Positions 229-62,632 of a DNA stretch of 62,632 nt are shown here, one piece after another. The notes under the pieces are model-generated. The model did not search any database. It was not told the origin of the DNA and saw nothing but the letters and a program-made list of their open reading frames with translations. The stretch covers positions 1 through 62,632 of the forward strand of contig JAKSUQ010000011.1 of NCBI GenBank assembly GCA_024408855.1, in the 5' to 3' direction. Position 1 is the first letter of the stretch, and each line of letters starts with the position of its first letter. This DNA is from a bacterium. Lineage in GTDB: Bacteria; Cyanobacteriota; Vampirovibrionia; Gastranaerophilales; Gastranaerophilaceae. The translations under genes and the position numbers were made by a program.

Positions 229-255
229 ATTACGGCAGATTTTTCCAAAACTTTA
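229..255 (-). promoter_or_regulatory. Type A promoter, sigma-28/WhiG-like
   Basis: On the minus strand: -35 TAAAGTTT (255-248), 11-nt spacer, -10 GCCGTAAT (236-229). The FliA consensus is TAAAGTTT-N11-GCCGATAA. Predicted start of transcription is near 222, giving a leader of about 47 nt to the ATG at 175. A GTAACAA box lies 15 nt upstream of the TAAAG, as at 58449-58475. Farther upstream, 281-296 (ATTTAAAACTCCTAAT on the plus strand) is repeated at 52049-52064 near another type A promoter. Confidence 0.75.
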
Positions 256-549
256 ATAAATTTTTGAAAATTGTTACAAAATTTAAAACTCCTAATTCCT
301 ATATCCTAATAAAGTATTTTAATTCATGCAAATTGACATATATGAAACGATATAATTTTACTAAATCCGCAAGGCTCAATATTCACGCTAAAAAGTCATC
401 TTAACAAAAATTAACATTTATCAATTTTATCAAAATTTGTACAACTACTCTCAAGCCGAAAGATGCTAAAACGAAATTCTTATGAGTTAGTGAGGAGTTC
501 GGTATCAGGTTTTATTTTCCCGTCTGAAAAATTACGCTTTGTAAATTGT

Positions 550-16831: not shown

Positions 16832-17842
16832 CTAAACATCCATTTTAAACATATTTTCAGAATTATCTTGCATAACTTTTTTGATACTATCCAACATTGT
16901 TTTAATTGACTCTTGCTCCGTTTTTAATGTTTCGGATCTTGCATCCAATTCTTTTTCTTTTGCTGTTATTATACTTTTTTCAGCTTCATAATCAATTTCT
17001 ACCAATTCTTGTGCTTCTAAATCATTCATAGATATTACTTTATTACAGTTAGCCGCAACATTGGTGTTATAATTATTTATGTATTTTAAAGAATTATTTT
17101 CGAATTTCGGAGTTGTAGTCACTGATGTCAAATTAAATTGATTATTTTGCAACATATCATTTAAATATTCTTTATTCGACACCTGATCATTACAAATCCA
17201 ACCTTTTTCAGCTATGGTTGAGAAAATATTATCATAAAAATTAATTTGGGACTCTTCGTCTGCTGTAAACAATTCATTATATTGGTTAATTGCATCATCA
17301 GCAGCTTGTTTATGCAAATCATATTCAGTTTTCCAATCTGCATAATTAGCTGCATTTTCATCAGGCTTTTGTGCATTTAAACCGTCTACAATTTCTTTTT
17401 CCTGAAGATAAGTGCAATAATAAGACTCTGCATTATCAAGATCCTGCTGCGGAATTCCTAATAAACCGGATAATATAGTTGACCTTACTGTTGCCCAATC
17501 GCCTCCCGGAGCTCCTCCAGGGGCAAGCATTTCTGCATATTGTTTTAATTCGGAAGTTATCACGACTCGATCATTCATATCAGTTAATAAATAAGGTTTA
17601 TTTGCATTGTATGTGCTTGGGGTCATTAAAACATTATATGTTAAATCTACACTTGAAACTCCACCATTAATAGTCCATTTTAAAACTTTTGTATTTAATT
17701 GATTTCTATATTCACTTGTAAGAGCATTCATATCACGAGTAAGAGACATTTTTTGCGTAGCAATTTTCATCAGCTCCAATTTATTGTCGCTTTGACGTCT
17801 TGTTAATGCTAAGAATCTTGCGGATGATGCTGCGAGTCCCAT
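16832..17842 (-). CDS. MGLAA-family protein, lineage-specific
   Basis: The start is ATG 17842 (336 residues), not the in-frame ATG at 17881: the type A promoter at 17884-17911 would start transcription near 17877, below the upstream ATG, and 17842 has AAAGGAAAAAGG in front of it. The new N-terminus MGLAASSARFLALTRRQSD matches the paralogue at 50951-51943 (MGLAAPAYTLLTLTARKSD). Both continue with a helical segment rich in K, Q and M, a variable middle, and a C-terminal coiled coil; here the end is ENMFKMDV. There is no signal peptide. I know of no function; similar short N-terminal motifs occur in hypothetical proteins of gut bacteria. Confidence 0.85.
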   Translation of the reverse strand: MGLAASSARFLALTRRQSDNKLELMKIATQKMSLTRDMNALTSEYRNQLNTKVLKWTINGGVSSVDLTYNVLMTPSTYNANKPYLLTDMNDRVVITSELKQYAEMLAPGGAPGGDWATVRSTILSGLLGIPQQDLDNAESYYCTYLQEKEIVDGLNAQKPDENAANYADWKTEYDLHKQAADDAINQYNELFTADEESQINFYDNIFSTIAEKGWICNDQVSNKEYLNDMLQNNQFNLTSVTTTPKFENNSLKYINNYNTNVAANCNKVISMNDLEAQELVEIDYEAEKSIITAKEKELDARSETLKTEQESIKTMLDSIKKVMQDNSENMFKMDV

Positions 17843-17883
17843 TTTGCCTTTTTCCTTTACAGAGTTTCCCTTATTTTCCATGT

Positions 17884-17911
17884 ATTACGGCATAATTTAT
17901 AAAAATCTTTA
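17884..17911 (-). promoter_or_regulatory. Type A promoter, sigma-28/WhiG-like
   Basis: On the minus strand: TAAAGATT (17911-17904), spacer of 12 nt (one longer than consensus), GCCGTAAT (17891-17884). A GTAA box precedes TAAAG by 15 nt after the 7-nt box, as in the other type A sites. The predicted leader is about 35 nt to the ATG at 17842. Confidence 0.68.
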
Positions 17912-18005
17912 ATAAATATTCGTAATTTTTTACAATTCTTTACATTTAATTTTAAACTGACCTGAATTCTGATTGTAAATTTTTGTAAATAATTTCTCTT
18001 CATGT

Positions 18006-18036
18006 GAAATTATAAATAATAAAAATACTTTATATA
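18006..18036 (+). promoter_or_regulatory. Type B promoter
   Basis: GAAATT (18006-18011), 13-nt spacer, ATACTTTATATATATA (from 18025). GTGAAATTA is shared with the site at 58553. A TTTGTAAATAA box lies 14 nt upstream of GAAATT. It drives the 53-residue gene at 18077 and diverges from the type A site at 17884-17911. Confidence 0.68.
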
Positions 18037-18076
18037 TATATACGAGATATAACATTAATTGAGAAAGGAATAAATT

Positions 18077-18238
18077 ATGACAACAACAAATTTAAATACT
18101 GCTGTTAGCTCAACAAATAAGACCCAAGATAATAATGGTTCTACATTTGGCAATGCGAATAATGATAATTGGTTGAAAAAACTCAAAGATGGTAACGTTT
18201 GGGATTTTGTAGCCGCAGGTGGGGCATATATGAGTTAA
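18077..18238 (+). CDS. Unknown 53-residue protein
   Basis: This short frame has AAAGGA 6 nt before its ATG, its own type B promoter and its own terminator at 18264, so it is a convincing one-gene unit. The first 30 residues are Thr/Asn/Ser/Gly-rich (MTTTNLNTAVSSTNK), followed by a small amphipathic end with WLKKLKDGNVWDF and AAGGAYMS. The polar N-terminus is like that of the type B gene at 58620 (MSTAINSNLLKDW). This composition resembles N-terminal signals of substrates of non-Sec secretion systems, but that is only a resemblance. It is too short and unusual to assign. Confidence 0.78.
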   Translation: MTTTNLNTAVSSTNKTQDNNGSTFGNANNDNWLKKLKDGNVWDFVAAGGAYMS

Positions 18239-26360: not shown

Positions 26361-27146
26361 TTATAATCCGAACTTCATTGAGTCGCCTTGAACTCTTTCT
26401 TTGATTTCTTCGTCTAAATTCTTTATTCTTTCTTTTACAGTATCTAATTCTGTTTTTGTAGCTTCGCTATCAAGCTCTTGCATTGTTTGTTCAAAACTCA
26501 ACGGTTCAAGTACGTCATCTTGTTCAGCTTCTAATTCAGCAATCATTGCAGTTTCCCAAATTGACACATTATCTTGGTAGTTCATTGTAGCTTGTTGAAC
26601 TTGATTTTGTACAAATTGTTGTTGTCGAGCAGCTTCACTACGAGCCGCAAGGAATAATTGAACATCTTTCGTAGAATAAGTTTTTTGATTATTTGCATCA
26701 TAATAATAATTCGGATCTGGTATATTTTTATCATCTTTAATACCTTGTCTACCAAAACCACCATTCATATTATAATAATCCATCATCTCAGAGAATTGTT
26801 CAGCAGACATTTGGGTTACTTCAGTTCCGCTGCCAAGTTTCATACCTTGCTGTACAAGTTGTCCCATACAGTTCATTGCGAATTCCGTCATACCGCCATA
26901 ATTCAACGGATTAAATGAAGTTGTACCGATATGTGCCTGGTTTTGGAATTCAACTGTCGCCCATTTTCTATACCTTTCAGCTTGTGATTTAACGTTCTCT
27001 ATCCTTGCGGTGTACATCTTCTGCACATTTTTAATCTGTTTTTCAATGCTTGAGTTTTTACGAGAGTGTTTGATGACTTCAAGTTCAAGTGCATTCCTCT
27101 CGCGAATAGCTTGCATTTTTTCGAAAAACAGTAAACATGTAGACAT
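26361..27146 (-). CDS. MKFGL-family protein, lineage-specific
   Basis: The 261-residue protein is mostly alpha-helical and coiled coil, without signal peptide or membrane segment. Its N-terminal part (RERNALELEVIKHSRKN) and its exact C-terminus (MKFGL) match the 170-residue protein at 56897-57409 (REINMLELEVMKKHSE ... MKFGL). The middle is Gln/Met/Asn/Tyr-rich. Both genes have type B promoters. The conserved last five residues suggest a recognition tag, perhaps for export or for a partner; this is inference. The ATG at 27146 has AAGGA 12 nt upstream. Confidence 0.8.
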   Translation of the reverse strand: MSTCLLFFEKMQAIRERNALELEVIKHSRKNSSIEKQIKNVQKMYTARIENVKSQAERYRKWATVEFQNQAHIGTTSFNPLNYGGMTEFAMNCMGQLVQQGMKLGSGTEVTQMSAEQFSEMMDYYNMNGGFGRQGIKDDKNIPDPNYYYDANNQKTYSTKDVQLFLAARSEAARQQQFVQNQVQQATMNYQDNVSIWETAMIAELEAEQDDVLEPLSFEQTMQELDSEATKTELDTVKERIKNLDEEIKERVQGDSMKFGL

Positions 27147-27181
27147 TTTTAGAATAAGTCCTTATATTATTACTTCTTATA

Positions 27182-27212
27182 TATATTAAGTATATCAAAT
27201 TACTGTAATTGC
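27182..27212 (-). promoter_or_regulatory. Type B promoter
   Basis: On the minus strand: GCAATT (27212-27207), 13-nt spacer, ATACTTAATATA (27193-27182). A TTTGTAACAA box lies 15 nt upstream of GCAATT. The leader contains GTAATAATATAAG, also found in the leader of the type B gene at 62483. Confidence 0.68.
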
Positions 27213-27333
27213 ATAAATAATATAGAATTGTTACAAATCTTTACATTAAATTTATATATTCTATATATGAATTTATAAAATATTTGTATTTAAAAAAATA
27301 TGATATAAAATCTTAATTATAAAGGTATGTTAA

Positions 27334-28347: not shown

Positions 28348-28426
28348 AACACTTGTGGTTGCAAGAAATTTAGCCGAAATGCAACGAATGGCTGGATGTT
28401 TTCAACCAAATAAAGTGAATAAGTTT

Positions 28427-28499
28427 GCGCTTGTAGCTCAGTCGGTAGAGCAATCCCCTTTTAAGGGAGAGGTCGCGCGTTCGAATCGCGCCAGGCGCA
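28427..28499 (+). tRNA. tRNA-Lys (anticodon UUU)
   Basis: The 73-nt cloverleaf is complete. Acceptor arm GCGCTTG (28427-28433) pairs with CAGGCGC (28492-28498). D arm is GCTC/GAGC, anticodon arm has loop CTTTTAA (anticodon TTT), and T arm GCGCG-TTCGAAT-CGCGC is perfect. The first pair of the anticodon stem is A-G, a mismatch. The CCA end is not encoded. dxr starts 31 nt downstream on the same strand and is probably cotranscribed. Confidence 0.95.
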
Positions 28500-28530
28500 A
28501 TTTTTGTTAGTAAAATAAAGATTTTTGAAT

Positions 28531-29649
28531 ATGAAAAGAAAAATCAGTATAATTGGCTCAACCGGTTCTATCGGGCGACAAGCTCTTGAAGTGATTGATA
28601 AACTTGAAGATAAATTTGAAATAAGAGCTTTAACGGCAGGTGCTAATACAGAGTTATTAAACGAGCAAATAAGAAAATACAAACCAAAGTATGCGTATGC
28701 TAAAAATTCCTCTGAAATTAGTGGTACAAGTTTATTGTCGCTTGAAGAAATTTGTTCGGATAAAGAAAATGATATTATTTTGGTTGCAGTTTCCGGAAAA
28801 ATTGGTTTAAAACCGACAGTCACTGCTATAAATAACGGAATTGATGTCGCTTTAGCAAACAAAGAAACACTTGTTATGGCAGGTGATATCGTTATGCCTT
28901 TAGCTAAAATAAACGGTGTAAATATTATTCCTGTTGATAGTGAACACTGTGCAATTCATCAATGTATAAAAGACATTAATCAAGTAGAAAAACTTATTAT
29001 AACAGCTTCCGGCGGACCATTTTTGAACAAAACAGTTGAAGATATGAAATCTGCCACTGTTTCGGAAGCTCTTGCACATCCTCGTTGGAAAATGGGAAAA
29101 AAAATTACAGTTGACAGTGCTACCCTTATGAATAAAGGGCTTGAAGTAATCGAAGCACACCATTTGTTTAATATGCCATATGATAAAATTGACGTAGTTG
29201 TTCATCCGCAAAGTATTGTGCACTCGGCAATTGAGTACATAGATGGTAGTGTTATAGCTCAAGTGGGATTGCCAAGCATGCATATACCTATTCAATATGC
29301 GATTACATATCCTGAAAGATTTGTGGGGATTAAGTCAAAGAGTTTCAGATTTTCCGAAATAGCAAGGTTAGATTTTGAAGTACCTGATTATAAAAAGTTT
29401 AAAACTCTAAAAATTGCCTATGATTGCGGGAAAATCGGAGGTTCAATGCCGATTTGTATGAATGCCGCAAATGAAGAAGCTGTATTTGCATTTTTAGAGG
29501 GCAAAATTAAGTTGTATGATATCGCTAAGATTGTTGAAAATATGTTAAGCCGGCATACTCCTATGTATAATCTTTCCTTGGATGATATTTTCGAACTTGA
29601 TAATGAAATTAGGATTAAAACTGTTGAGCAGTTAAATGTTCATGCTTAA
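28531..29649 (+). CDS. dxr: 1-deoxy-D-xylulose 5-phosphate reductoisomerase
   Basis: This 372-residue enzyme makes 2-C-methyl-D-erythritol 4-phosphate with NADPH, the committed step of the non-mevalonate isoprenoid pathway. It has the NADPH fold GSTGSIGRQAL, the metal and substrate motifs PVDSEHCAIHQC, ASGGPF, HPRWKMGKKITVDSATLMNKGLE (checked in parts) and AANEEAVFAF. A TTG two codons earlier is possible, but the ATG at 28531 gives the usual start. It overlaps the convergent ctpA gene by 35 nt. Confidence 0.97.
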   Translation: MKRKISIIGSTGSIGRQALEVIDKLEDKFEIRALTAGANTELLNEQIRKYKPKYAYAKNSSEISGTSLLSLEEICSDKENDIILVAVSGKIGLKPTVTAINNGIDVALANKETLVMAGDIVMPLAKINGVNIIPVDSEHCAIHQCIKDINQVEKLIITASGGPFLNKTVEDMKSATVSEALAHPRWKMGKKITVDSATLMNKGLEVIEAHHLFNMPYDKIDVVVHPQSIVHSAIEYIDGSVIAQVGLPSMHIPIQYAITYPERFVGIKSKSFRFSEIARLDFEVPDYKKFKTLKIAYDCGKIGGSMPICMNAANEEAVFAFLEGKIKLYDIAKIVENMLSRHTPMYNLSLDDIFELDNEIRIKTVEQLNVHA

Positions 29650-30877
29650 TTTCATTATTTAATATATCTTTAGCTTTATTTAACTGAATATCATCTTTTG
29701 GATTAAAGAACAGATAATTGTATTCGTTTCCGATTTCAACATCAGGTTTAATTCCTAACTTATTAATATCAGTGCCATTAGGAGTCAAATATCTTGCAAT
29801 GGTTACATTTAAACCGGTACGGTTTGGAAGCGGTATGACTTTTTGTACAAGTCCTTTACCAAATGTTTTTCGACCTACTAATTTTGCTTTATGAGAGTCT
29901 TTCAAAGCTCCGGAAAGAATTTCACTTGCACTTGCACTTGCACCATTTACAAGCACAACTATCGGCTTTTTAATTATACTGTTTGATTTTGTTGCATTTA
30001 TAATCTTTTTGTTTTCATTTTTATAAATAATTTCAACAATTTTCCCTTCATCAATAAACATATTTGCTATAAAAACAGCATTATCAAGAAGTCCGCCTGT
30101 ATTACCCCTTAAATCCAAAATAATAGAATCTGTATTTTTTGTATTTTCAAGGGCCTCTAAAAATTCTTTCGGAGTATTTTCACCCATAAAACTTATTATA
30201 TGAATATATCCTATATGATTGTCTAATATTGAACTTTTTACGTTTTTAATTTTTATTTCCTTGCGTTTAATTTTTTTTACAATTTTTTTTGAATTTCTAA
30301 GCAGTGTCAACTCTACCACACTATTTTCAGGACCTCTTACAAGCGAAGACACCTCTGAAACACTCATTCCGTTAATTTCTTTTCCATCAACCGCAACAAT
30401 AATGTCCCCTTGTTTTAATTGAGAAAAATCAGCAGGTGTTGACGGTATAACATTAAATACTTCAATTTTACCTGAATTTGAATAGATATTAACACCAATA
30501 CCATATATTTTTGATGTTATTGAAGTTGTTAAATCTTGAAAATCTTTGCTGTTCATATATCTTGTATAAGGTTCATCCAAACTGGCTATCATAGTATCAA
30601 TAGCTACTTTTGCATCATCCTCAGTCTTTATTTTCCCTTGATATCTATATTTCCAACGGCTCCATTTTTGATGATTTAATGTTGTATCATAATATTCTTT
30701 TGAAATAACTTTCCAAGTTAAATCAAAAAATTTCTGTGGCGCAAGTTCAGTATCATTATACAAAGATTTAGACAGCAAATAATCACTTGCTTTATTATAA
30801 GTATTCAAAAATACGTGGTTAAACATAACCAGTATTAACAATAAAAATAACGGTATTATTATTTGTTTAACTCTCAT
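29615..30877 (-). CDS. ctpA: Carboxyl-terminal processing protease (S41, CtpA type)
   Basis: The protein has 420 residues from ATG 30877. An N-terminal hydrophobic segment (about 5-25) exports or anchors it. A PDZ domain (about 110-195, GIGVNIYS...AVDGKEINGM) precedes the S41 catalytic core with Ser in NGASASASEIL and Lys in GRKTFGKGLVQ. It trims or degrades periplasmic proteins at their C-termini. I prefer 30877 because the predicted promoter (TTGCTT-N17-TTAAAT at 30912-30884) would start transcription at that ATG. Two earlier starts (30895, 30898) lie inside that promoter. Confidence 0.93.
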   Translation of the reverse strand: MRVKQIIIPLFLLLILVMFNHVFLNTYNKASDYLLSKSLYNDTELAPQKFFDLTWKVISKEYYDTTLNHQKWSRWKYRYQGKIKTEDDAKVAIDTMIASLDEPYTRYMNSKDFQDLTTSITSKIYGIGVNIYSNSGKIEVFNVIPSTPADFSQLKQGDIIVAVDGKEINGMSVSEVSSLVRGPENSVVELTLLRNSKKIVKKIKRKEIKIKNVKSSILDNHIGYIHIISFMGENTPKEFLEALENTKNTDSIILDLRGNTGGLLDNAVFIANMFIDEGKIVEIIYKNENKKIINATKSNSIIKKPIVVLVNGASASASEILSGALKDSHKAKLVGRKTFGKGLVQKVIPLPNRTGLNVTIARYLTPNGTDINKLGIKPDVEIGNEYNYLFFNPKDDIQLNKAKDILNNEIKHEHLTAQQF

Positions 30878-30958
30878 ACAAATATTTAACATCAACAATA
30901 CTTGCTAAGCAATACACCATCTGTTATACAAAAGAATTATATAATAAATGTTATATCT

Positions 30959-31627
30959 TTATTGATTATTAAATCCGGGAGAAGTTACCGGTAAATTTTT
31001 ATAACCGTTATTTGAATATACTGCTTTTTTGATATATTTATTTGTATAATTTCCCTTTTCTAACAATTGTCTTAATGTATTTTCTCTTGCTACCAATGAA
31101 GATTCCAAAATATTTTCTTCAGGATACATTTTTATCATTTCATCCCAAACACATGCTTCCATTGTCCAAGCATAAGTTTCCTCACTAAGAGAATTGTATT
31201 CATCCTGATGCAACGCTTCATGCGCTATCAATGCAGCTATTGCCGCAGGCGGAGCATCAGAATGTTTAGGGTTTATATATATAAACAGCTTATTTTTCTT
31301 TTTCCAACCTACTGCATCAAATGTTTCATATGCCGAGTTTAATTCTGTTAAATTCTTAAATGAAATTTGCATCGGATACTGTGTAAGATTAAATCCCATA
31401 ATTGCTCTTCTGGAATAATCAGCCGAAGTATTTTTCATCATATCTAAAGCAATATGCACTACCTGTTCGTTTGAAACTTTCTTGTACTCATTTGTTAAAG
31501 CATCTAAATATGCGTCAGTATACTTCTCAGGCAGCTTTACATTACAAGAAACAGGTATAATATCAGTAGCATTACACTTACATCCTATTAGTAACAGTAA
31601 AAATATATAAAATATTGTTTTTTTCAT
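30959..31627 (-). CDS. Putative lipoprotein with HExxH motif
   Basis: The 222-residue protein begins with a signal peptide ending in a lipobox (LLIGC, Cys16), so it is probably lipid-anchored. HEALHQDEYNSLSEE in the middle has the HExxH plus downstream Glu layout of gluzincin-type metallopeptidases. Two Cys after the lipobox may form a disulfide. It could be a small periplasmic peptidase; substrate unknown. It is divergent from the MnmC-like gene. Confidence 0.75.
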   Translation of the reverse strand: MKKTIFYIFLLLLIGCKCNATDIIPVSCNVKLPEKYTDAYLDALTNEYKKVSNEQVVHIALDMMKNTSADYSRRAIMGFNLTQYPMQISFKNLTELNSAYETFDAVGWKKKNKLFIYINPKHSDAPPAAIAALIAHEALHQDEYNSLSEETYAWTMEACVWDEMIKMYPEENILESSLVARENTLRQLLEKGNYTNKYIKKAVYSNNGYKNLPVTSPGFNNQ

Positions 31628-31693
31628 AATATTGCCTTCCTTTATAATTATATACTTTTTAATTAAATTAAGTCAAAAATATTATAAACATTC

Positions 31694-31722
31694 TTGCAAT
31701 ATAGCTGAAACCTTGATATAAT
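31694..31722 (+). promoter_or_regulatory. Sigma-70 promoter, leaderless start of the MnmC-like gene
   Basis: TTGCAA (31694-31699), 17-nt spacer, TATAAT (31717-31722), then 7 nt to the ATG at 31730. The transcript should start at or one base before the ATG. Confidence 0.7.
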
Positions 31723-31729
31723 TAGCAAT

Positions 31730-33148
31730 ATGAGGGATTTTGAATTTTATTATACGCACGACGGTTCAGTCGGATTGTACTCTTATGATGTAAATGACGT
31801 CTATCATTCAAAGTTTGGAGCTTTATCGGAAGCATGGACTAAATTTGTATTACCTTCTGGGATTGATAAATTGGTTAATAATAAAAAAAATATCAACATT
31901 TTAGATGTATGCTATGGCATAGGTTATAATACAAAAGCTCTCATGAGTTTTGTAATTAATAAAAATTCCGAAATTTTAAAAAATAAAAAAATAAAAAAAT
32001 TAACTAACAGAAATAAAAATATCGTTTCGAAATATACCAATAATCTCAAAATTAACACAGTGGAATTATTGCCATATATCGAAACGAACAACAAGGTTAA
32101 TTTTTCTTCTTTTAATATCGATTGTTTAGAAATGAATAAAACATTGGTAAAAATTTCACCTTTGCTTAAAACAGTTAATTATAATAAAAAATTCTTCAGA
32201 AAAATTTTTCCGCATACATATTTTTATTTAAAAAAAAGACTTAAAAAAAATTGTTTTATATACAATCTACTATTTTTGCCAAAATTAAGAAATAATAAAA
32301 ATATCTCTCAACTTTTAAATTTAAGATACCGAGAAGATGATAAACAATTAATTAATGTTAGCAGCGACTATGAAATCAATAAGTATGTAAATAAAATTAT
32401 ACTAAAAAAAATTAAAGAGAATTTTGGAGATTTTATTGTTGATGAATATTCAGAAAATTTATATACAAAGCAGCAAAATTATAAATATTTTGATAGATAT
32501 ATGATAGGTTTAGCTAAAAATAATGGTTTATTTGGATATAAAACTCAATCAAAGTCAAAATTATACGCCTTGTTACATAATATATATTATAGATATTTAT
32601 CGAGTCGATACATAAAGATGAATTTTGATATAGCTAATAGCCTATTTAATCTCAATTTTTATATAGATGATGCAAGAAAGACTGTTGTAAACCTAATTGA
32701 TGATTATTACGACCTCATTTTTTTAGATGCCTTTACCTTTACAAATTCGCCTGAACTTTGGACTGTAGAATTTATTGAACAATTATATAAAAAACTTTCA
32801 CAAAACGGAAAGATTTTAACGTATTCTAATTCAGCATCCGTTAGAATGGCGTTTTTAAATAATAATTTATATGTTGGTAAAATCAAAGATGAAATAACAG
32901 GAAATTTCGTAGGTACAATAGCTTCAAAAGACAAATCCGCTATAAAATATCCATTAAATAATTATGAACTTGGACTTTGCAATACAAAAGCAGGCATACC
33001 GTATCATGATGAAAACTTGTCCTTACCGAAAGAGATTATTTTAAAAAGGCGCAAATATGAATTTAATACAAGTGATTTAATAACGGCTTCACAATACAAA
33101 AAAGCAATGCAACTGAAGAATAAGGAGTTTAACAATGAGCAAGAATGA
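31730..33148 (+). CDS. MnmC/MnmD-like tRNA methyltransferase domain protein
   Basis: The 472-residue protein matches the MnmC methyltransferase family at both ends: DVYHSKFGALSEAW and DVCYGIGYNTKALM (SAM-binding loop) near the start, and DLIFLDAFTFTNSPELWTVEF near residue 330, the family's DAFsPxxNPELWT motif. Between them is a Lys/Asn-rich insertion of about 170 residues (about 85-265), absent from ordinary MnmD. The family adds the last methyl group of mnm5s2U34 in tRNAs such as Lys(UUU). The gene appears leaderless and overlaps the next gene (an FAD enzyme) by 14 nt. In E. coli MnmC the same step is fused to an FAD enzyme. Confidence 0.82.
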   Translation: MRDFEFYYTHDGSVGLYSYDVNDVYHSKFGALSEAWTKFVLPSGIDKLVNNKKNINILDVCYGIGYNTKALMSFVINKNSEILKNKKIKKLTNRNKNIVSKYTNNLKINTVELLPYIETNNKVNFSSFNIDCLEMNKTLVKISPLLKTVNYNKKFFRKIFPHTYFYLKKRLKKNCFIYNLLFLPKLRNNKNISQLLNLRYREDDKQLINVSSDYEINKYVNKIILKKIKENFGDFIVDEYSENLYTKQQNYKYFDRYMIGLAKNNGLFGYKTQSKSKLYALLHNIYYRYLSSRYIKMNFDIANSLFNLNFYIDDARKTVVNLIDDYYDLIFLDAFTFTNSPELWTVEFIEQLYKKLSQNGKILTYSNSASVRMAFLNNNLYVGKIKDEITGNFVGTIASKDKSAIKYPLNNYELGLCNTKAGIPYHDENLSLPKEIILKRRKYEFNTSDLITASQYKKAMQLKNKEFNNEQE

Positions 33149-34415
33149 ATATGATGTTATAATAGCCGGAGGAGGAACAGCCGGAGTTAGTTGTGCTTGG
33201 AATTCAGCAAAACTTGGACTTAAAACTCTTTTAATTGAACAAAATTCATATTTGGGCGGTGCCATAACTTCATCATTAGTAATTCCTGCAATGAAAAATT
33301 CAGCTAATTCAATAAATAATCAGTTTTACAAAAAATTATATTCAGAACTTTCTGCTGTTAACGGTGCAATTACATATTCTGACGGCAATATAGGTTGGTT
33401 TAATCCGGAATTAACAAAGATAATTCTGGATAAAATGATGAAAGATGTTGGAGTGGATGTTGTATTTAATTCACATATTAGTAATATAAAGCAAAAAGAA
33501 AACAAAAATTTATCAGTACATATTGAAACGATATATACAAATAACATGTTTGTTTCTCTTAAAGAATTATTGTTAGATATCGAAACGAGATATTTGGTAG
33601 ATAGCACAGGCGATGGAAAAATTTGCCAAAAATTAAATTGCAAAATTTTAGAAAATTCAAAAGAAAATTTTCAACCTGTTAGTTTAAGATTTGTCATGGC
33701 TGGTATTGATGTAGAAACTTTTGCAGCTTGGCTTGAAGAATATGATAGTGATAGAAATGTTACTACTATTGCTCATATTAACAATGAAATACACCTATCA
33801 ACGGCTTATACTTGGGATACAAATAAGAAATGGGCTTTAAAGCCTTTGTTTGAGGATGCCATAGAGAAAAACATTCTTAAATATGAAGATACTAACTATT
33901 TTCAAATATTTACAATTGCCGGGGCTGCCGATTCTATTGCGTTTAACGCCCCAAGATTACTCAATAATGATATTACTGAAACTGAAGCATATATAATAGG
34001 CAGAGAAAGCATTTTAAGACTTTCAAACTTTTGTAAAACTTATTTCCCGGGATTTGACAAGGCGTATATTTCTAAAATAGCTGATAAGATAGGCATACGA
34101 ACATCATACAGAATAGAATGCGAATACATCTATACATATGAAGATTTAATTTCTGGTAAAAAATTCAATAATCCTGTCGTTATATCAGATTATCCTGTTG
34201 ATATTCATTCGGCAAAGCAAAATTCGTCAACGCTTGAAAAAGTTACGCAAGAATACCAATTACCAGTTGAAGCATTAATTGTTAAAGGGCATTCAAACCT
34301 TTTTGTAATTGGTAAATGTATTTCAACAGATGATAAGGCCATTGGGGCATTAAGAATAATTCCGTCTTGTTTCTGTATGGGAGAAGGACTTGCTAAATAC
34401 ATATCGGAAAAATAA
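33135..34415 (+). CDS. FAD-dependent oxidoreductase
   Basis: The 426-residue protein begins with a Rossmann FAD site (DVIIAGGGTAGVSCA) and then IEQNSYLGGAITSSLV, with DSTGDGKIC in the middle and a C-terminal GALRIIPSCFCMGEG that returns to the FAD. This is the FAD_oxidored type, related to fumarate-reductase-like flavoproteins, not the DAO type fused in E. coli MnmC. Its start overlaps the methyltransferase gene by 14 nt, so the two are coupled and may work on one pathway. Substrate unknown. Confidence 0.85.
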   Translation: MSKNEYDVIIAGGGTAGVSCAWNSAKLGLKTLLIEQNSYLGGAITSSLVIPAMKNSANSINNQFYKKLYSELSAVNGAITYSDGNIGWFNPELTKIILDKMMKDVGVDVVFNSHISNIKQKENKNLSVHIETIYTNNMFVSLKELLLDIETRYLVDSTGDGKICQKLNCKILENSKENFQPVSLRFVMAGIDVETFAAWLEEYDSDRNVTTIAHINNEIHLSTAYTWDTNKKWALKPLFEDAIEKNILKYEDTNYFQIFTIAGAADSIAFNAPRLLNNDITETEAYIIGRESILRLSNFCKTYFPGFDKAYISKIADKIGIRTSYRIECEYIYTYEDLISGKKFNNPVVISDYPVDIHSAKQNSSTLEKVTQEYQLPVEALIVKGHSNLFVIGKCISTDDKAIGALRIIPSCFCMGEGLAKYISEK

Positions 34416-34416
34416 A

Positions 34417-35304
34417 TTAATCCTCATCAAAATTGTTTGTAATTGTGTGAATATATTCCAATAATTGTCTAAAATAATCTATATCCGTACTTCCGTTAAG
34501 AACAACATCTGCAAATTCTCTTGCAGGTTGCACATACTTTTCTCCGGCACCTATGATATATTCCCAGTGTTTTTTAGCGTTATCCAAATCCTGGTTTCTT
34601 TCGGTATAAGCACGCCTTAAAAATCTTTCACGTCTTACTTCAAGCTCAGTTTCCACATAAACTTTAATATCAAAAATATCTTTAATCTCATCAAACATTG
34701 TTGCCATACCTTCAACAATAATAATTTTATTCGAAGGCACAAACTTTGAATGAGGGATTGAAACACCTGTCCCGTTGGGCATATACTCAGGTGCATATAT
34801 ATCATTACCTAAAGAAATACTTTTTAAATCACTTTTCAAAATATCAAGCTGAAAACTTGTCGGGGAATCTATATCATAACCGTTATCCCTTAGAGCATCA
34901 AACGTACCGTATTTTTTAATTAAATCAGAAATATCGTTAAAATAATTGTCAGTTGAATGTATTGTAACAGGCATATCAAAACTTTTAATTAAATCAGAAA
35001 TTGCTCTGCATATGGTTGACTTTCCAGAAGCAGATTCTCCGGTAATACCTATCATAATCCTTTTGTCAGGATTAGAAATTAATCTGCGAGAAAATTTTTG
35101 AGCAAAATCAAGCTTAACTTCCTTAAAGATAGGACATGCTTCTTGGCTATCATAAAAAAGTAATTGCTTGAATTTTGTCTGTAAATAGAAAGCCAAGAGC
35201 TCTCTGCCGGATTTTTGGGTAAAATCAGGTTTTAAAATCTTATCATCTGAATTGATTTCTTTTTCAATCAGGTGATGCAAACCATTTTTGTCATCATCAA
35301 TCAT
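34417..35304 (-). CDS. Uridine kinase/phosphoribulokinase-family P-loop kinase
   Basis: The 295-residue protein has a P-loop GESASGKST (89-97) followed by HSTDNYFND, EYMPNGTG and IIVEGMATMFDE, the succession of uridine kinase and phosphoribulokinase-type enzymes. The first 85 residues are an additional helical region. It probably phosphorylates a nucleoside or a sugar; the true substrate cannot be read from the sequence. It ends 1 nt from the convergent FAD-enzyme stop. Confidence 0.85.
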   Translation of the reverse strand: MIDDDKNGLHHLIEKEINSDDKILKPDFTQKSGRELLAFYLQTKFKQLLFYDSQEACPIFKEVKLDFAQKFSRRLISNPDKRIMIGITGESASGKSTICRAISDLIKSFDMPVTIHSTDNYFNDISDLIKKYGTFDALRDNGYDIDSPTSFQLDILKSDLKSISLGNDIYAPEYMPNGTGVSIPHSKFVPSNKIIIVEGMATMFDEIKDIFDIKVYVETELEVRRERFLRRAYTERNQDLDNAKKHWEYIIGAGEKYVQPAREFADVVLNGSTDIDYFRQLLEYIHTITNNFDED

Positions 35305-45271: not shown

Positions 45272-45299
45272 AAAAAAAAAGCTTCTCAAAAGGAGAAGC
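45272..45299 (-). terminator. Rho-independent terminator of small RNA
   Basis: Reading the minus strand, GCTTCTC (45299-45293) pairs with GAGAAGC (45287-45281), followed by nine T. The T run is only on the minus side, so it does not belong to the plus-strand gene ending at 45269. Confidence 0.85.
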
Positions 45300-45354
45300 G
45301 AAATTAGAAAATCAGGGATATTAAGGATAATAAGAAATCTGTTTTTACATCTTA
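45275..45354 (-). ncRNA. Candidate small RNA of about 80 nt
   Basis: A type B promoter (45359-45389) and a minus-strand terminator (45272-45299) bracket about 80 nt with no open frame: the first ATG is followed at once by TAA. The single-stranded part contains pyrimidine-rich stretches (TTATCCTTAATATCCCT) that could pair with Shine-Dalgarno sequences, and the terminator loop side has TCTCCTTTT, also anti-SD-like. It may act as an antisense regulator of mRNAs with AAGGAG sites. Ends are estimated. Confidence 0.6.
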
Positions 45355-45358
45355 CATA

Positions 45359-45389
45359 TATATAAAGTATATATGTTATTTTTAATTTC
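45359..45389 (-). promoter_or_regulatory. Type B promoter
   Basis: On the minus strand: GAAATT (45389-45384), 13-nt spacer, ATACTTTATATA (45370-45359), continuing identically with the promoter at 58574 through GTAAGATG. A TTTGTAACAA box lies 14 nt upstream of GAAATT. The remaining gap 45400-45657 holds a TATAAT at about 45616 that could serve the gene at 45658. Confidence 0.7.
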
Positions 45390-45657
45390 ATTTTAATTAA
45401 AAATTGTTACAAAAATTTACAATTCAACATGCTTGTTAGCACCTTCATTAAATCAATAAATATTCTAAAAATAAAAAAACAATCAATTATAACTACAAAT
45501 TAGTTTTTAAAACATTCCTAATAGTAAAAAAATAATCAAGTTTGTATCTTAACAATTTCTTTACATTATTGAAAAAATAGGCAATTTTAGAAGTTCATTG
45601 CTTTTAAATGTATGTAACTCTTGATATAATTAATGAGTTACATTAGAAGAACAGTGT

Positions 45658-50950: not shown

Positions 50951-51943
50951 TTATCCACCCCATTCAAAAGCTTTTATTCCGTCTTGTATAAAATTATTTA
51001 TAGCATCTATTTCTGTATTAATAGTTTCTAATTCTGTGGACCAGTCTTGAATACACAAATCAACATCTTCTTCTTTCTGCTTTATAAGATCTTTTTGAAT
51101 TTCATACCATGCATTAATATCTCCTTTTGCATCCAAATCTACCTGAGCATCTACATCACCTCGGTTAATAAAGTACGTCAAAGAAGTACCTTCACAATAT
51201 TGACCATATGGATCAACATCAAACAACTGCAATGTACCTGATGTAACTGCATCAGATATATATGACGGATTATCTGCAATAGCTTGGTTATATTCAGTTG
51301 TCCAACCGTTTGCAGCTGCTGCCGCAAAAATATTGTAATAAAAATCTATAACTTTACGGACTTTTTCTGTTGCCTTTTCAGTTATATCAACTTCGGCACT
51401 TTCTCCTGTTGACTGACCGCCATAAGCCCTAATCAATTCTGCATCATAAGTTGTACTTAAATTTTCCCCGTTATGAACTCTTCTTATCATATCAGCATCA
51501 CTAAAATAACCCGAAAGAAAACTTGCCATGATATCCGGTATTTTAGTAGCATCAAATGTTTTACCACGTCCATTTGAATCCATAATAGATGAACCCATGA
51601 CATTCTTAATTGCATTAGCATATGCATCCGAAAGTACAACTTGTCCTTTATAATCACACAAAACCAGTGAATTAGTTGTTTTTAAAGGTTTGCTATCGTT
51701 CAATATAGGCATATAATTAGAATTATATCCCATTAAATATCCGTAATTTACATCATTATATTTTCCATTATTATAATAAACCAATCTCTTGGCATTTAAA
51801 CGGCTCCTGTATTCTTGCGTTAAATTGGACATTTCATTTGCCATGGCTCTTTTTTGCATAGTAGCACGTGTGATATCATATTCGATATCCGATTTCCTTG
51901 CAGTTAAGGTTAATAGTGTGTATGCCGGTGCCGCTAATCCCAT
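50951..51943 (-). CDS. MGLAA-family protein, lineage-specific
   Basis: The 330-residue protein starts MGLAAPAYTLLTLTARKSD and is a clear paralogue of the one at 16832-17842 in its first 60 residues (then EYRSRLNAKRLVYY versus EYRNQLNTKVLKW). Both share the central 'YYNIFAAAAANGWTTE' / 'FYDNIFSTIAEKGWICN' element and a C-terminal coiled coil. No signal peptide. The ATG at 51943 has AAAGGA about 11 nt upstream and the type A promoter gives a leader of about 28 nt. The conserved N-terminus is probably the functional signature; function unknown. Confidence 0.85.
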   Translation of the reverse strand: MGLAAPAYTLLTLTARKSDIEYDITRATMQKRAMANEMSNLTQEYRSRLNAKRLVYYNNGKYNDVNYGYLMGYNSNYMPILNDSKPLKTTNSLVLCDYKGQVVLSDAYANAIKNVMGSSIMDSNGRGKTFDATKIPDIMASFLSGYFSDADMIRRVHNGENLSTTYDAELIRAYGGQSTGESAEVDITEKATEKVRKVIDFYYNIFAAAAANGWTTEYNQAIADNPSYISDAVTSGTLQLFDVDPYGQYCEGTSLTYFINRGDVDAQVDLDAKGDINAWYEIQKDLIKQKEEDVDLCIQDWSTELETINTEIDAINNFIQDGIKAFEWGG

Positions 51944-51977
51944 TTTCTATTGTTCCTTTTTTGTCCTTTTGCTATAT

Positions 51978-52004
51978 ATATCGGCATTTTTTTATAAAAC
52001 TTTA
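51978..52004 (-). promoter_or_regulatory. Type A promoter, sigma-28/WhiG-like
   Basis: On the minus strand: TAAAGTTT (52004-51997), exactly 11 nt, GCCGATAT (51985-51978). It differs from the FliA consensus only in the last two bases. GTAAATT lies 15 nt upstream and GTAACAA 25 nt upstream of TAAAG. Confidence 0.82.
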
Positions 52005-52042
52005 ACATTTTTGCGATAAAATTTACAATTTGTTACAAATAT

Positions 52043-52064
52043 ATTAGGATTTAAAACTCCTAAT
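52043..52064. repeat. Inverted repeat with copy of 16-bp element from left edge
   Basis: ATTAGGA (52043-52049) and TCCTAAT (52058-52064) form a 7-bp palindrome. The right 16 bases (52049-52064) are identical to 281-296, which lies at the corresponding place upstream of another type A promoter. Either a regulator site or a hairpin. Confidence 0.55.
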
Positions 52065-52082
52065 GAAGTTTTTCAACTTAAT

Positions 52083-52111
52083 AGTGTTGCGATTGCTTCT
52101 TGAATCCACCT
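52083..52111 (-). repeat. 29-bp repeat, copy 1
   Basis: Identical on the opposite strand to 62580-62608. On the minus strand it begins AGGTGGATTCAAG and ends CGCAACACT. The flanks are also similar (GTTAACAAAAC upstream in both). It lies between the type A (minus) and type B (plus) promoters. Both copies could be read as the end of a frame, but no longer frame is present. Confidence 0.8.
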
Positions 52112-52200
52112 TTATCGAAATTGTTAAGTTTTGTTAACTTAAATTTACATTGATATATCTTAATTTCAGCTACAAAGTCAAGTTTCTAACATTAATACAG

Positions 52201-52231
52201 TCAATTTTTTTTAAGTTTAAAACTTATATAA
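52201..52231 (+). promoter_or_regulatory. Type B promoter (weaker match)
   Basis: TCAATT (52201-52206), 13-nt spacer, AAACTTATATAATATATA (from 52220). Spacing is exactly as in the other type B sites, with a slightly different -10 box that includes TATAAT. It diverges from the type A site at 51978-52004. Confidence 0.58.
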
Positions 52232-52260
52232 TATATATAGCTATCACGAGGTGTATAATA

Positions 52261-56896: not shown

Positions 56897-57409
56897 TTAC
56901 AAACCGAATTTCATTGCATTTTCTTCGGTTTGTTCTTTCAATAATTCTTTGCATGCTTTCAAGTTATTTTTCTTCACTGTTAATTCTTGTTGCAAGCTGT
57001 TAAGTTCAAGTTGAATTTCCTGTTCTTTTCTGTTCATCATTTGAACTTCCTGCATTTTGAGAGATTGCATTGCTTGCTCCTTAAACTTATTAAAAGCACT
57101 CATTTCAATTTGCATTTGAGTATATTGGTTTCCGGTATATGGCACTCTCCCCATAGCTTTCATTTGTTGCAAATTTTGCATTGCACTGACAGAACTTGCC
57201 ATATCCATGTATTGCCCAAACATAGATGCTCTGCCTATAAGATTTGGTGCAAGTCCGGCTATTTGTGATAAACCAAAACAGTTTGAACCGCCAAGCCTTC
57301 CTGCATAGCGTTGGTAGTTCATAAGCTCTGAGTGTTTTTTCATCACCTCAAGCTCAAGCATATTTATTTCGCGTGTGAGTCTCTGGACCATCCAGAATGC
57401 TACATACAT
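56897..57409 (-). CDS. MKFGL-family protein, lineage-specific
   Basis: The 170-residue protein shares REINMLELEVMKKHSE near the N-terminus and the identical C-terminal five residues MKFGL with the protein at 26361-27146. The middle is Met/Gln-rich with a Gly-containing loop (GRLGGSNCFGLSQIAGLAPN); the last 70 residues are a heptad coiled coil. No membrane segment or signal peptide. The type B promoter gives a leader of about 48 nt. Function unknown. Confidence 0.8.
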   Translation of the reverse strand: MYVAFWMVQRLTREINMLELEVMKKHSELMNYQRYAGRLGGSNCFGLSQIAGLAPNLIGRASMFGQYMDMASSVSAMQNLQQMKAMGRVPYTGNQYTQMQIEMSAFNKFKEQAMQSLKMQEVQMMNRKEQEIQLELNSLQQELTVKKNNLKACKELLKEQTEENAMKFGL

Positions 57410-57463
57410 AATAAACCTACCTAACTTTAACTAACCTATGTTGACCTATTTTAACCTTACACT

Positions 57464-57494
57464 TATATAAAGTATTTTAGTTTTCAAAAATTGC
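57464..57494 (-). promoter_or_regulatory. Type B promoter
   Basis: On the minus strand: GCAATT (57494-57489), 13-nt spacer, ATACTTTATATA (57475-57464). AAATGGCAATT is shared exactly with the promoter at 62541-62546. Confidence 0.7.
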
Positions 57495-57576
57495 CATTTT
57501 TATATTAAATATTAAGTTTTGTAAAGTTTGCAATTATTTATTTTAAATTATAGAATTAAAAAAATGGAGAATAGCT

Positions 57577-58026
57577 ATGATTAAAGACAAAATTAAATAC
57601 GCCGAATTATATTATTCTATCTCAGAAAATTTAAAATTAGGATTTGAATGGTTAAAAAGACAAGATCTGCAAAATATGCAAGATGGAAAATATATTATTA
57701 AAGATAAAATGTATGCAAATATTCAGACTTATGAAACAAAAGCAGATGCTGACTATGAAGCCCACAATAATTATATTGATATTCAATACATTATAGACGG
57801 ATACGAATTTATCGGGATTGCAGACAGAAATGTATGCTCATCAACAATACCTTATGATAAAAACAAAGATATTGAATTTATGACATATGCTTCAAATGAT
57901 GACTACCAACTATTGAATAAGAGTGAATTTTTACTACTGTTTCCTACTGACGCACATAAACCGTCCATAAACCCTAATAAAAAAGTTACAGTCAGAAAAG
58001 CTGTTGTAAAAGTTCCTTTAAATTAA
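57577..58026 (+). CDS. YhcH/YjgK/YiaL family protein
   Basis: The 149-residue protein has the cupin-type fold of this family: YANIQTYETK, ADYEAHNNYIDIQYII and the metal-site His in FLLLFPTDAHKP. Relatives act in sialic acid or beta-galactoside metabolism (EbgC, NanQ). No carbohydrate operon surrounds it. ATG 57577 has GGAG upstream. It overlaps the convergent gene by 4 nt. Confidence 0.92.
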   Translation: MIKDKIKYAELYYSISENLKLGFEWLKRQDLQNMQDGKYIIKDKMYANIQTYETKADADYEAHNNYIDIQYIIDGYEFIGIADRNVCSSTIPYDKNKDIEFMTYASNDDYQLLNKSEFLLLFPTDAHKPSINPNKKVTVRKAVVKVPLN

Positions 58027-58409
58027 GCTGCAATAAAAATATTCTTAGAAAAATCAATGATAATTTCACCCAAATCATCAGGTATAATTGTGTCTGCCGG
58101 TAACTCCATTGTATTCCATAATTCGCCTAATATATGTTGTTTTTTCTTATTATTAGATTGACTTTTTAAATAATTAAGAGTAGCTTTGAGAGACTTATTT
58201 AAAGTTATCTGTGAAGAAGCCATAATTATTGATTTTTGAGCATTTATATATTTGCTGTCATCTGTCAGAGAGAAAGTCCTGTCAATAATTTTTTGTATAT
58301 CCTCACTTGAATGTTTTTTCCCACTCAAAATATCTCTGGCTGTATTACGCAAGTTTTCCCTGTTTTCAAATTGATAATTATTCATAGTTTGCATAATATT
58401 AATAGACAT
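58023..58409 (-). CDS. Unknown 128-residue protein
   Basis: I do not recognise it. It is soluble and helical, with a polar N-terminus (MSINIMQTMNNYQFENREN), a KHSSEDIQKIIDRTFSL segment and a C-terminal hydrophobic end (IIIDFSKNIFIAA). It is expressed from a type A promoter, with AAGGA about 10 nt before the ATG, and is divergent from the acidic type B protein at 58620. It may be a small chaperone-like partner of that neighbour; this is inference from size and position. Confidence 0.75.
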   Translation of the reverse strand: MSINIMQTMNNYQFENRENLRNTARDILSGKKHSSEDIQKIIDRTFSLTDDSKYINAQKSIIMASSQITLNKSLKATLNYLKSQSNNKKKQHILGELWNTMELPADTIIPDDLGEIIIDFSKNIFIAA

Positions 58410-58448
58410 AATCCCAAAGTCCTTATTTTTTTTCCTTTTCTAATACAT

Positions 58449-58475
58449 ATATCGGCATAAATTAAAAAAACTTTA
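58449..58475 (-). promoter_or_regulatory. Type A promoter, sigma-28/WhiG-like
   Basis: On the minus strand: TAAAGTTT (58475-58468), 11 nt, GCCGATAT (58456-58449). GTAACAA lies 15 nt upstream of TAAAG. Near-identical to the site at 51978-52004. Confidence 0.82.
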
Positions 58476-58554
58476 ATGTTTTAACATAGATTGTTACAAA
58501 AGTTAATATAATCTTTAAATTATGTAAAGTTATGTAACAAATAAAACAAGTTGT

Positions 58555-58585
58555 GAAATTAGATAATTTTTAAATACTTTATATA
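58555..58585 (+). promoter_or_regulatory. Type B promoter
   Basis: GAAATT (58555-58560), 13 nt, ATACTTTATATA (58574-58585), followed by TATGTAAGATG, identical to the small-RNA promoter at 45359. A GTAACAA box lies 14 nt upstream of GAAATT. Confidence 0.72.
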
Positions 58586-58619
58586 TATGTAAGATGAATA
58601 TAAAACAGGAGCAAAAATT

Positions 58620-58919
58620 ATGTCAACAGCAATTAACAGCAACTTATTAAAAGATTGGATAATCGACAAAATTGGTGGCAAAGAATTAGAAAAGAAAGAT
58701 TGCAAAGATTATGACATTGATGATAAGAAATTTGCAGAAGCAGATGATAATTTAGATGAAGTACTCGATCTTGATGAATTGCTTGATGAAAATACTGAAG
58801 TATATGAAATGTTTGCAACAATGTACACTGAAGAATTAGAAAAAGATAATAGCGATCCAGATAAAGCTAAAGACGAGGAAAATAGAGTTCAAGGAACAAA
58901 TAATAACGCACAGGCTTAA
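58620..58919 (+). CDS. Small acidic protein, lineage-specific
   Basis: The 99-residue protein is very acidic (many Asp/Glu in the middle, with DLDELLDEN), and polar at the ends (MSTAINSNLL, and NNNAQA at the C-terminus). ATG 58620 has AGGAG upstream. It has its own type B promoter and a terminator at 58981. Strong acidity and small size are typical of chaperones of secreted proteins or of DNA-mimic proteins. It shares its promoter type and N-terminal style with the 53-residue gene at 18077. Function unknown. Confidence 0.78.
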   Translation: MSTAINSNLLKDWIIDKIGGKELEKKDCKDYDIDDKKFAEADDNLDEVLDLDELLDENTEVYEMFATMYTEELEKDNSDPDKAKDEENRVQGTNNNAQA

Positions 58920-62261: not shown

Positions 62262-62483
62262 TTAGTAGTAGAAGCTCATCCTTAACAATCTTTTAAACCA
62301 ATTTTCTTTAACAGCTTGAACAGGAGGCATCGGACCATGTCCAATGATATCCAAAGGGTATTGCATATATCTTGGCGAATTACCAAAATCAACATTACCG
62401 CACCAATACTTATTATGGAAAGATTGATATACGTTTACACCAGCGGAATTCATAGACATTGAAGTATTCATTGACATTAGCAT
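62262..62483 (-). CDS. Unknown small Met-rich protein
   Basis: The protein of 73 residues begins MLMSMNTSMSMNSAG and contains aromatic residues and two Cys-free loops with a PMPPVQ segment, and a basic C-terminus (WFKRLLRMSFYY). ATG 62483 has AAGG about 10 nt upstream; a GTG three codons earlier is too close to it. It has a type B promoter. It probably belongs to the same regulon as the short proteins at 18077 and 58620. Function unknown. Confidence 0.68.
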   Translation of the reverse strand: MLMSMNTSMSMNSAGVNVYQSFHNKYWCGNVDFGNSPRYMQYPLDIIGHGPMPPVQAVKENWFKRLLRMSFYY

Positions 62484-62515
62484 ATAAAACACACCTTCTT
62501 ATATTATTACACAAT

Positions 62516-62546
62516 TATATAAAGTATTTTTTGTATAAATAATTGC
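62516..62546 (-). promoter_or_regulatory. Type B promoter
   Basis: On the minus strand: GCAATT (62546-62541), 13 nt, ATACTTTATATA (62527-62516). AAATGGCAATT is shared with the site at 57489. Confidence 0.7.
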
Positions 62547-62579
62547 CATTTACGTTAACAAAACGTAACATTTGAATTT

Positions 62580-62608
62580 AGGTGGATTCAAGAAGCAATC
62601 GCAACACT
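62580..62608 (+). repeat. 29-bp repeat, copy 2
   Basis: Identical to the reverse complement of 52083-52111. It is preceded in both copies by a GTTAACAAAAC-like stretch. Here it lies between a type B promoter (minus) and the right edge of the window; copy 1 lies between a type B and a type A promoter. Confidence 0.8.
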
Positions 62609-62632
62609 TAAAGATTGAAGTTTTTGTTTTGG

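What the first reader, a model, noticed from the sequence alone, without database searches (positions are those of the whole stretch)
17843..18076. Divergent type A | type B control regions, three times
In 17843-18076, 51944-52260 and 58410-58619 a type A promoter points left and a type B promoter points right from one short intergenic region. Each pairs an MGLAA or small-protein gene with another lineage-specific gene. This repeated design suggests coordinated or opposite expression of two protein sets of one system.
Basis: seen in the sequence. Interest (0 to 1): 0.72.

Follow-up and report, generated by a model that had tools for sequence, protein, structure and literature searches.

The report
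Shared RpaB-type box on two promoters
In a non-photosynthetic gut relative of cyanobacteria, two large promoter classes (one flagellar sigma-28-like, one undescribed) carry at the same distance a DNA box like the one that the light-response regulator RpaB binds in cyanobacteria, which suggests what this leftover regulator does there; the back-to-back pairing that was flagged is about as frequent as chance.

Summary
The window is one contig of a Candidatus Gastranaerophilales genome. "Type A" is a real promoter class: the FliA/sigma-28 consensus (about 40 sites, one before a flagellin gene). "Type B" is a second real class, (G)GCAATTTTT or GTGAAATT, then TACTTTATATATATGTAAGA (67 sites at E<=0.02). 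Two of the three reported divergent regions are genuine A|B pairs (17880-18076, 58410-58619). The third (51944-52260) has a perfect type A, but its right side is not type B by profile and holds a 3' IS30-like remnant. Genome-wide there are 3 close A|B pairs against 1.4 expected (A|A 1 against 0.4, B|B 2 against 1.2), so pairing is not a design principle here, although one pair is kept in three species. What does unite the classes: both carry, at a fixed distance from the -35 element, a direct repeat with the published sequence and 2-nt spacing of HLR1, the RpaB box of cyanobacteria. 40 of 54 strong HLR1 matches in 419 kb sit on these promoters; the position recurs in other species. The genome encodes an RpaB equivalog, whose role in these dark-living bacteria was an open question. 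Best reading: RpaB co-activates a sigma-28 regulon and a second-sigma regulon. No binding or expression data exist here.

The parts
17884..17912 (-). Type A (sigma-28-like) promoter of the MGLAA gene 16832-17842; -35 TTAAAG, -10 GCCGTAAT, spacer one base longer than usual
17929..17946 (-). HLR1-like box (AATGTAAAGAATTGTAAA on the promoter strand), 16/16 to the published consensus, at the class offset -34
17972..17989 (+). HLR1-like box of the type B promoter (ATTGTAAATTTTTGTAAA), 16/16
18004..18045 (+). Type B promoter (GTGAAATT - TACTTTATATATATATACGA) of a 53-aa protein gene at 18077-18238
16832..17842 (-). MGLAA-family protein, 336 aa, no Pfam family; A side of region 1
51978..52005 (-). Type A promoter of MGLAA gene 50951-51943, exact consensus
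52022..52039 (-). HLR1-like box of that type A promoter (TTTGTAACAAATTGTAAA), 16/16
52041..52112 (+). 3' remnant of an IS30-like transposase (reads ILGFKTPNEVFQLNSVAIAS*) plus element end, between the A promoter and the right-hand gene; the right-hand gene has no supported type B promoter
58449..58476 (-). Type A promoter of the 128-aa gene 58023-58409, exact consensus
58493..58510 (-). HLR1-like box of that type A promoter (TATATTAACTTTTGTAAC), 14/16
58521..58538 (+). HLR1-like box of the type B promoter (TATGTAAAGTTATGTAAC), 16/16
58553..58594 (+). Type B promoter of the 99-aa acidic protein gene 58620-58919
229..256 (-). Fourth type A promoter in the window, with a weak type B (308-337, E=0.09) upstream in tandem on the same strand
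45349..45390 (-). Type B promoter of a putative non-coding RNA (about 45273-45349, minus strand) ending in an intrinsic terminator
57454..57495 (-). Type B promoter (E=3e-9) before gene 56897-57409; not paired with a type A
27173..27213 (-). Type B promoter (E=0.001) before gene 26361-27146; not paired with a type A
62507..62547 (-). Type B promoter (E=1e-5) before gene 62262-62492

Best explanation
The flagged regions are places where members of two large regulons happen to lie head to head. Type A promoters are read by a sigma-28-type holoenzyme; type B promoters have the same geometry but different -35 and -10 sequences and are read by another, unidentified sigma factor. Both classes carry one HLR1-type direct repeat about 17 bases upstream of the -35 element. 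I infer that the genome's RpaB ortholog binds it and activates transcription from this upstream position, so that both classes rise and fall with one phospho-signal while each sigma factor adds its own timing. Each of the two A|B regions in the window has its own box for each promoter; the promoters do not share one operator. Shown by sequence: the promoter classes, the box, its fixed position, its conservation, the RpaB gene. Inferred: binding, activation, the cognate sigma factors.
For: Type A matches the sigma-28 consensus and precedes a flagellin gene. HLR1 is published as two (G/T)TTACA(T/A)(T/A) repeats separated by 2 nt, bound by RpaB (PMC9241938). In type A, 18 of 39 promoters match it 16/16 and 25 of 39 at 14 or more, all at offset -34 (background 16/16 rate 3.2e-5). 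Mean 13.28 against a maximum of 8.49 in 200 shuffles, and the published 2-nt spacer is the best of spacers 0-5 in type A and in both orientations of type B. 40 of 54 strong boxes in 419 kb lie on A or B promoters. The type A position recurs in 14 of 21 top sites in other species and 8 of 10 sites in 80 further Gastranaerophilales loci. RpaB equivalog model NF045944: 354.5 bits, cut-off 330. Upstream boxes activate in cyanobacteria (PMC6331805, PMC9241938). A and B also stand in tandem.
Against: No expression or binding data. Two other OmpR-family regulators are encoded and this family often binds direct repeats. The box in type B occurs in two orientations and is weaker; about a third of type A promoters, including the flagellin promoter C17:22198, lack a good box. 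The 419 kb sample is enriched in A/B neighbourhoods. No dedicated sigma factor here reaches the FliA_WhiG cut-off.
Confidence: 0.62

Rival explanations
1. The divergent A|B arrangement is a selected module: two protein sets of one system are tied by sharing one control region.
For: Three close A|B pairs here, 3 and 4 in two congeners with no close A|A or B|B there; the pair MSNFTVNGVYSY | MAxLNTYNINAMATQIS is kept at 173-175 bp in three species, and an MGLxA gene | small RNA pair is kept in two.
Against: Own-genome counts of A|B, A|A and B|B (3, 1, 2) fit random placement (1.4, 0.4, 1.2) within Poisson error. Most A and B promoters are unpaired. The two window pairs were not among the pairs found in the two congeners.
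Confidence: 0.15
2. The direct repeat is a box for a different OmpR-family regulator of this genome (C1:62998 or C2:56125) and the resemblance to HLR1 is family likeness only.
For: OmpR/PhoB-type regulators generally bind direct repeats of about this period (own knowledge); two further such regulators are present.
Against: Sequence and spacing fit the published HLR1 exactly, and only the C1:140001-140783 protein passes the RpaB equivalog cut-off.
Confidence: 0.2
3. The repeat is an AT-rich UP-element-like feature that contacts RNA polymerase directly, with no regulator.
For: AT-rich and upstream of the -35 element.
Against: Highly conserved G positions in a two-fold repeat at an exact 10-base period, and an orientation kept in type A, are not features of UP elements.
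Confidence: 0.07
4. Type B is not a promoter of a special sigma factor but an ordinary RpoD or group-2 promoter (xTGAAA/xGGCAA, 16 nt, TACTTT) with a conserved transcribed leader ATATATATGTAAGA.
For: The hexamer TACTTT has the TAnnnT pattern and 16-nt spacing to GTGAAA/AGGCAA (my reading); three group-2-like sigma factors exist.
Against: Conservation extends without a break over about 20 bases and far exceeds that of usual RpoD promoters.
Confidence: 0.25

Closest known systems
HLR1 element bound by RpaB in cyanobacteria (PMC9241938, PMC6331805)
   Same: Two TTACA-type repeats separated by 2 nt; placed just upstream of the core promoter, where RpaB activates in cyanobacteria.
   Different: Here the boxes sit on sigma-28-type and type B promoters of MGLAA, EF-hand-like and other lineage-specific genes, not on photosystem or high-light genes.
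FliA/sigma-28 (class 3) flagellar promoters
   Same: TAAA-N15-GCCGATAA-type consensus; a flagellin gene is among the targets.
   Different: Extended TTAAAGTTTT -35 element, about 40 sites mostly before non-flagellar genes, with an upstream regulator-type box on most of them.
RpaA/RpaB/NblS homologs of Melainabacteria (PMC3787301, PMC4040986)
   Same: The same regulator genes, reported in 2013 with no known role ('may have another function').
   Different: No target genes or boxes were proposed in the passages I read; this report supplies candidates.

Membership tests
Sigma-28 (FliA) promoters | -35 TAAA and -10 GCCGATAA about 15 nt apart | tested here: met
   TAAA-N15-GCCG fixed in type A
Sigma-28 (FliA) promoters | precedes flagellin or other late flagellar genes | tested here: met
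   C17:22198 before a flagellin with PF00669 and PF00700
FliA sigma factor | scores above the FliA_WhiG curated cut-off | tested here: not met
   best dedicated candidate L011 77 bits, cut-off 189.6; a diverged FliA-like protein only
HLR1 element | two (G/T)TTACA(T/A)(T/A) repeats separated by 2 nt | tested here: met
   16/16 in 18 of 39 type A; 2-nt spacer optimal
HLR1 element | bound by RpaB | not testable with these tools
   needs a binding assay
RpaB | passes the NCBIfam RpaB equivalog cut-off | tested here: met
   NF045944 354.5 over 330 for L100:967-1749
Type B as an ordinary RpoD promoter | TTGACA-like and TATAAT-like hexamers 16-18 nt apart as the sole conserved parts | tested here: inconclusive
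   possible hexamers, but conservation is longer
IS30 family element at 52041-52112 | transposase with IS30 domains | tested here: inconclusive
   only a C-terminal 20-residue remnant and repeated ends at contig borders; named from memory of IS30 C-termini

The most novel reading that the evidence does not exclude
RpaB, known only as the light-stress and photosystem regulator of cyanobacteria, runs a sigma-28 and second-sigma regulon of motility-linked and lineage-specific genes in non-photosynthetic sister bacteria; its box is older than its use in photosynthesis, and type B is a promoter class with a dedicated, undescribed sigma specificity.
Probability: 0.4. Interest if true: 0.85.

Novelty: new variant of a known kind. 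Interest (0 to 1): 0.68.

Why it matters
Why non-photosynthetic relatives of cyanobacteria keep RpaB has been open since 2013. A fixed, conserved RpaB-type box on about a hundred promoters gives that question a direct test, defines two regulons in an uncultured gut lineage, and bears on what RpaB did before photosynthesis.

Tried and rejected
Region 2 as a third A|B pair: rejected by the genome-wide type B model and a flexible-spacer score. Opposite expression of A and B: not favoured, since box and position are shared and tandem A/B occur. Function of MGLAA proteins: no Pfam family; a model (pLDDT 74, pTM 0.60) shows long N- and C-terminal helices around a middle domain; Foldseek has no match below 0.001 and the structural second look lists many coiled coils, flagellins among them, so no fold is claimed. 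Relatives of the region 1 MGLAA protein in GTDB genomes: none found; the family alignment was not conserved enough to search. Plasmid search with region 3: no match. Rfam on the window and small-RNA loci: only a tRNA. Suppressor tRNA at 28426: rejected, it is an ordinary tRNA-Lys.

Full report
WHAT WAS CLAIMED. Three intergenic regions were said to hold a type A promoter pointing left and a type B promoter pointing right, as a repeated design.

THE TWO PROMOTER CLASSES ARE REAL. The window is contig C13 of a 1.96-Mb, 110-contig genome; the relatives of one of its sigma factors are mostly Candidatus Gastranaerophilales from animal guts. Type A is TTAAAGTTTT-N9-TGCCGWTAW. The strict form has 5 hits and 0 in the reversed control; the relaxed form has 56 against 24. 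It is the FliA/sigma-28 consensus, and one site stands before a flagellin gene. Type B was recovered as TACTTTATATATATGTAAGA, 26 hits against 0 controls; aligning the sites revealed a -35-like element, GGCAATTTTT or GTGAAATT, about 20 bases upstream of TACTTT. A profile of type B finds 67 sites at E<=0.02 in this genome and 35-88 in each of 21 congeners, but only 5-22 in other families of the order. Type A shows 17-57 sites in congeners and 2-22 outside.

THE THREE REGIONS. Regions 1 and 3 are A|B pairs. Region 2 has a perfect type A, but its right-hand side is not type B by the profile even at E<=0.5, and its best flexible score equals the 95th percentile of random stretches. It contains a 3' remnant of an IS30-like element (52041-52112), the same sequence that lies at several contig ends next to other A or B promoters.

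PAIRING IS ABOUT AS FREQUENT AS CHANCE. Over the genome, close (<250 bp) divergent pairs number A|B 3 (two in the window, one at C34:16161/16334), A|A 1, B|B 2 at E<=0.02. From 40 divergent junctions in 258 kb (about 304 genome-wide) and about 55% of A and B promoters at such junctions, hand arithmetic expects 1.4, 0.4 and 1.2; P(A|B>=3) is about 0.16. In two better assembled congeners A|B are 3 and 4 and close A|A and B|B are absent. Pooled, 10 of 13 pairs are A|B where about 46% is expected, but the same orthologous pair recurs in all three genomes and two more pairs in two, so this is a weak hint only. The conserved pairs are MSNFTVNGVYSY | a small protein (173-175 bp in three species), an MGLxA gene | a small RNA next to an rsgA-like gene (two species), and MADG/MANN | MSVNFGYGGYG (two species).

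WHAT THE CLASSES SHARE. Upstream of both lies a direct repeat. In type A it reads TGTAA-N5-TGTAA at one fixed position. This is the reverse complement of HLR1, published as two (G/T)TTACA(T/A)(T/A) repeats separated by 2 nt and bound by RpaB (PMC9241938; PMC6331805). Scoring with the published consensus, 18 of 39 type A promoters match 16 of 16 positions and 25 match 14 or more, at offset -34. The mean at that offset is 13.28; the best of 200 shuffles is 8.49; and among spacers 0-5 the published 2 is best. In type B the box lies at the same distance from the -35 element, sense for GTGAAATT promoters and mostly antisense for GGCAATTTTT promoters, with the same optimal spacer. Of 54 strong boxes in 419 kb, 40 belong to A or B promoters; this sample is enriched in such promoters. 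In other species the type A offset recurs in 14 of 21 top sites, and in a sample fetched for a sigma-factor gene in 8 of 10 sites.

WHO BINDS IT. Three OmpR-family regulators are encoded. One, C1:140001-140783, passes the RpaB equivalog cut-off, 354.5 over 330; the other two do not. RpaB, RpaA and NblS were reported in these bacteria in 2013 with the remark that they may have another function (PMC3787301) and found in all three orders then known (PMC4040986). In cyanobacteria, HLR1 upstream of the core promoter goes with activation. The boxes here are upstream of the -35 element, so activation is the natural inference. In each of the two window pairs each promoter has its own box, so the promoters are likely co-activated rather than switched. 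Tandem B-then-A promoters before one gene (window 308/229; two in G020) point the same way.

WHICH SIGMA FACTORS. Seven sigma-70-family proteins were found. L011 and L012 are diverged FliA-like proteins, below the FliA cut-off; L008 is SigF/SigB-like; three are group-2-like; one is RpoD. L011/L012 for type A is inference. The sigma factor of type B is unknown.

GENE PRODUCTS. Type A genes encode flagellin, MGLAA/MGMAAS proteins, EF-hand-like proteins and others; type B genes encode small proteins, ribbon-helix-helix-like regulators and, in several cases, terminator-ended putative small RNAs (domain labels other than flagellin are read by eye). MGLAA function remains unknown.

LIMITS. Everything is sequence evidence. 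No binding, transcript start or expression was measured; genomes are draft assemblies; expected pair counts rest on my own gene calls.

Noticed in passing
window 45273-45349, minus strand; L192 and L195 (B side): A type B promoter drives a putative non-coding RNA of about 75 nt with CCCT motifs and a strong terminator (GCTTCTCCTTTTGAGAAGC-T9). Similar RNAs lie divergent to MGLxA genes in two congeners. No Rfam family matches.
   Followed up: partly
L065 and L067 (C30:418, C34:26618): Two near-identical type B-driven putative small RNAs (ACAACCTACACACTAACCTTCTACACATGAGGAATTA... then a terminator) in one genome.
   Followed up: no
window 52041-52112, 62581-62619; C60:1-55; C51:1-54; C35:14-52; C16:28872-28899: IS30-like 3' ends, several of them a short distance upstream of HLR1-like boxes of A or B promoters; possible insertion preference or promoter shuffling. 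C51 and window region 3 share the same type B upstream sequence.
   Followed up: partly
L072-L073 (C16:8621-14993 and 29082-35107): Two separate flagellar/type III export gene sets (two FlhA-family proteins, a FliF) on one contig; a third partial FlhA-family frame on C67.
   Followed up: partly
C17:29362 and C30:19151 (L054, L055): A type B promoter and its 94-aa gene occur in two identical copies on different contigs.
   Followed up: no
window 28426-28500: ARAGORN labels a tRNA as Stop (tta); the Rfam alignment puts the anticodon at TTT, an ordinary tRNA-Lys.
   Followed up: yes
C1:140926 (L037): A type A promoter with an HLR1-like box (15/16) begins about 140 bases downstream of the rpaB gene end.
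   Followed up: no
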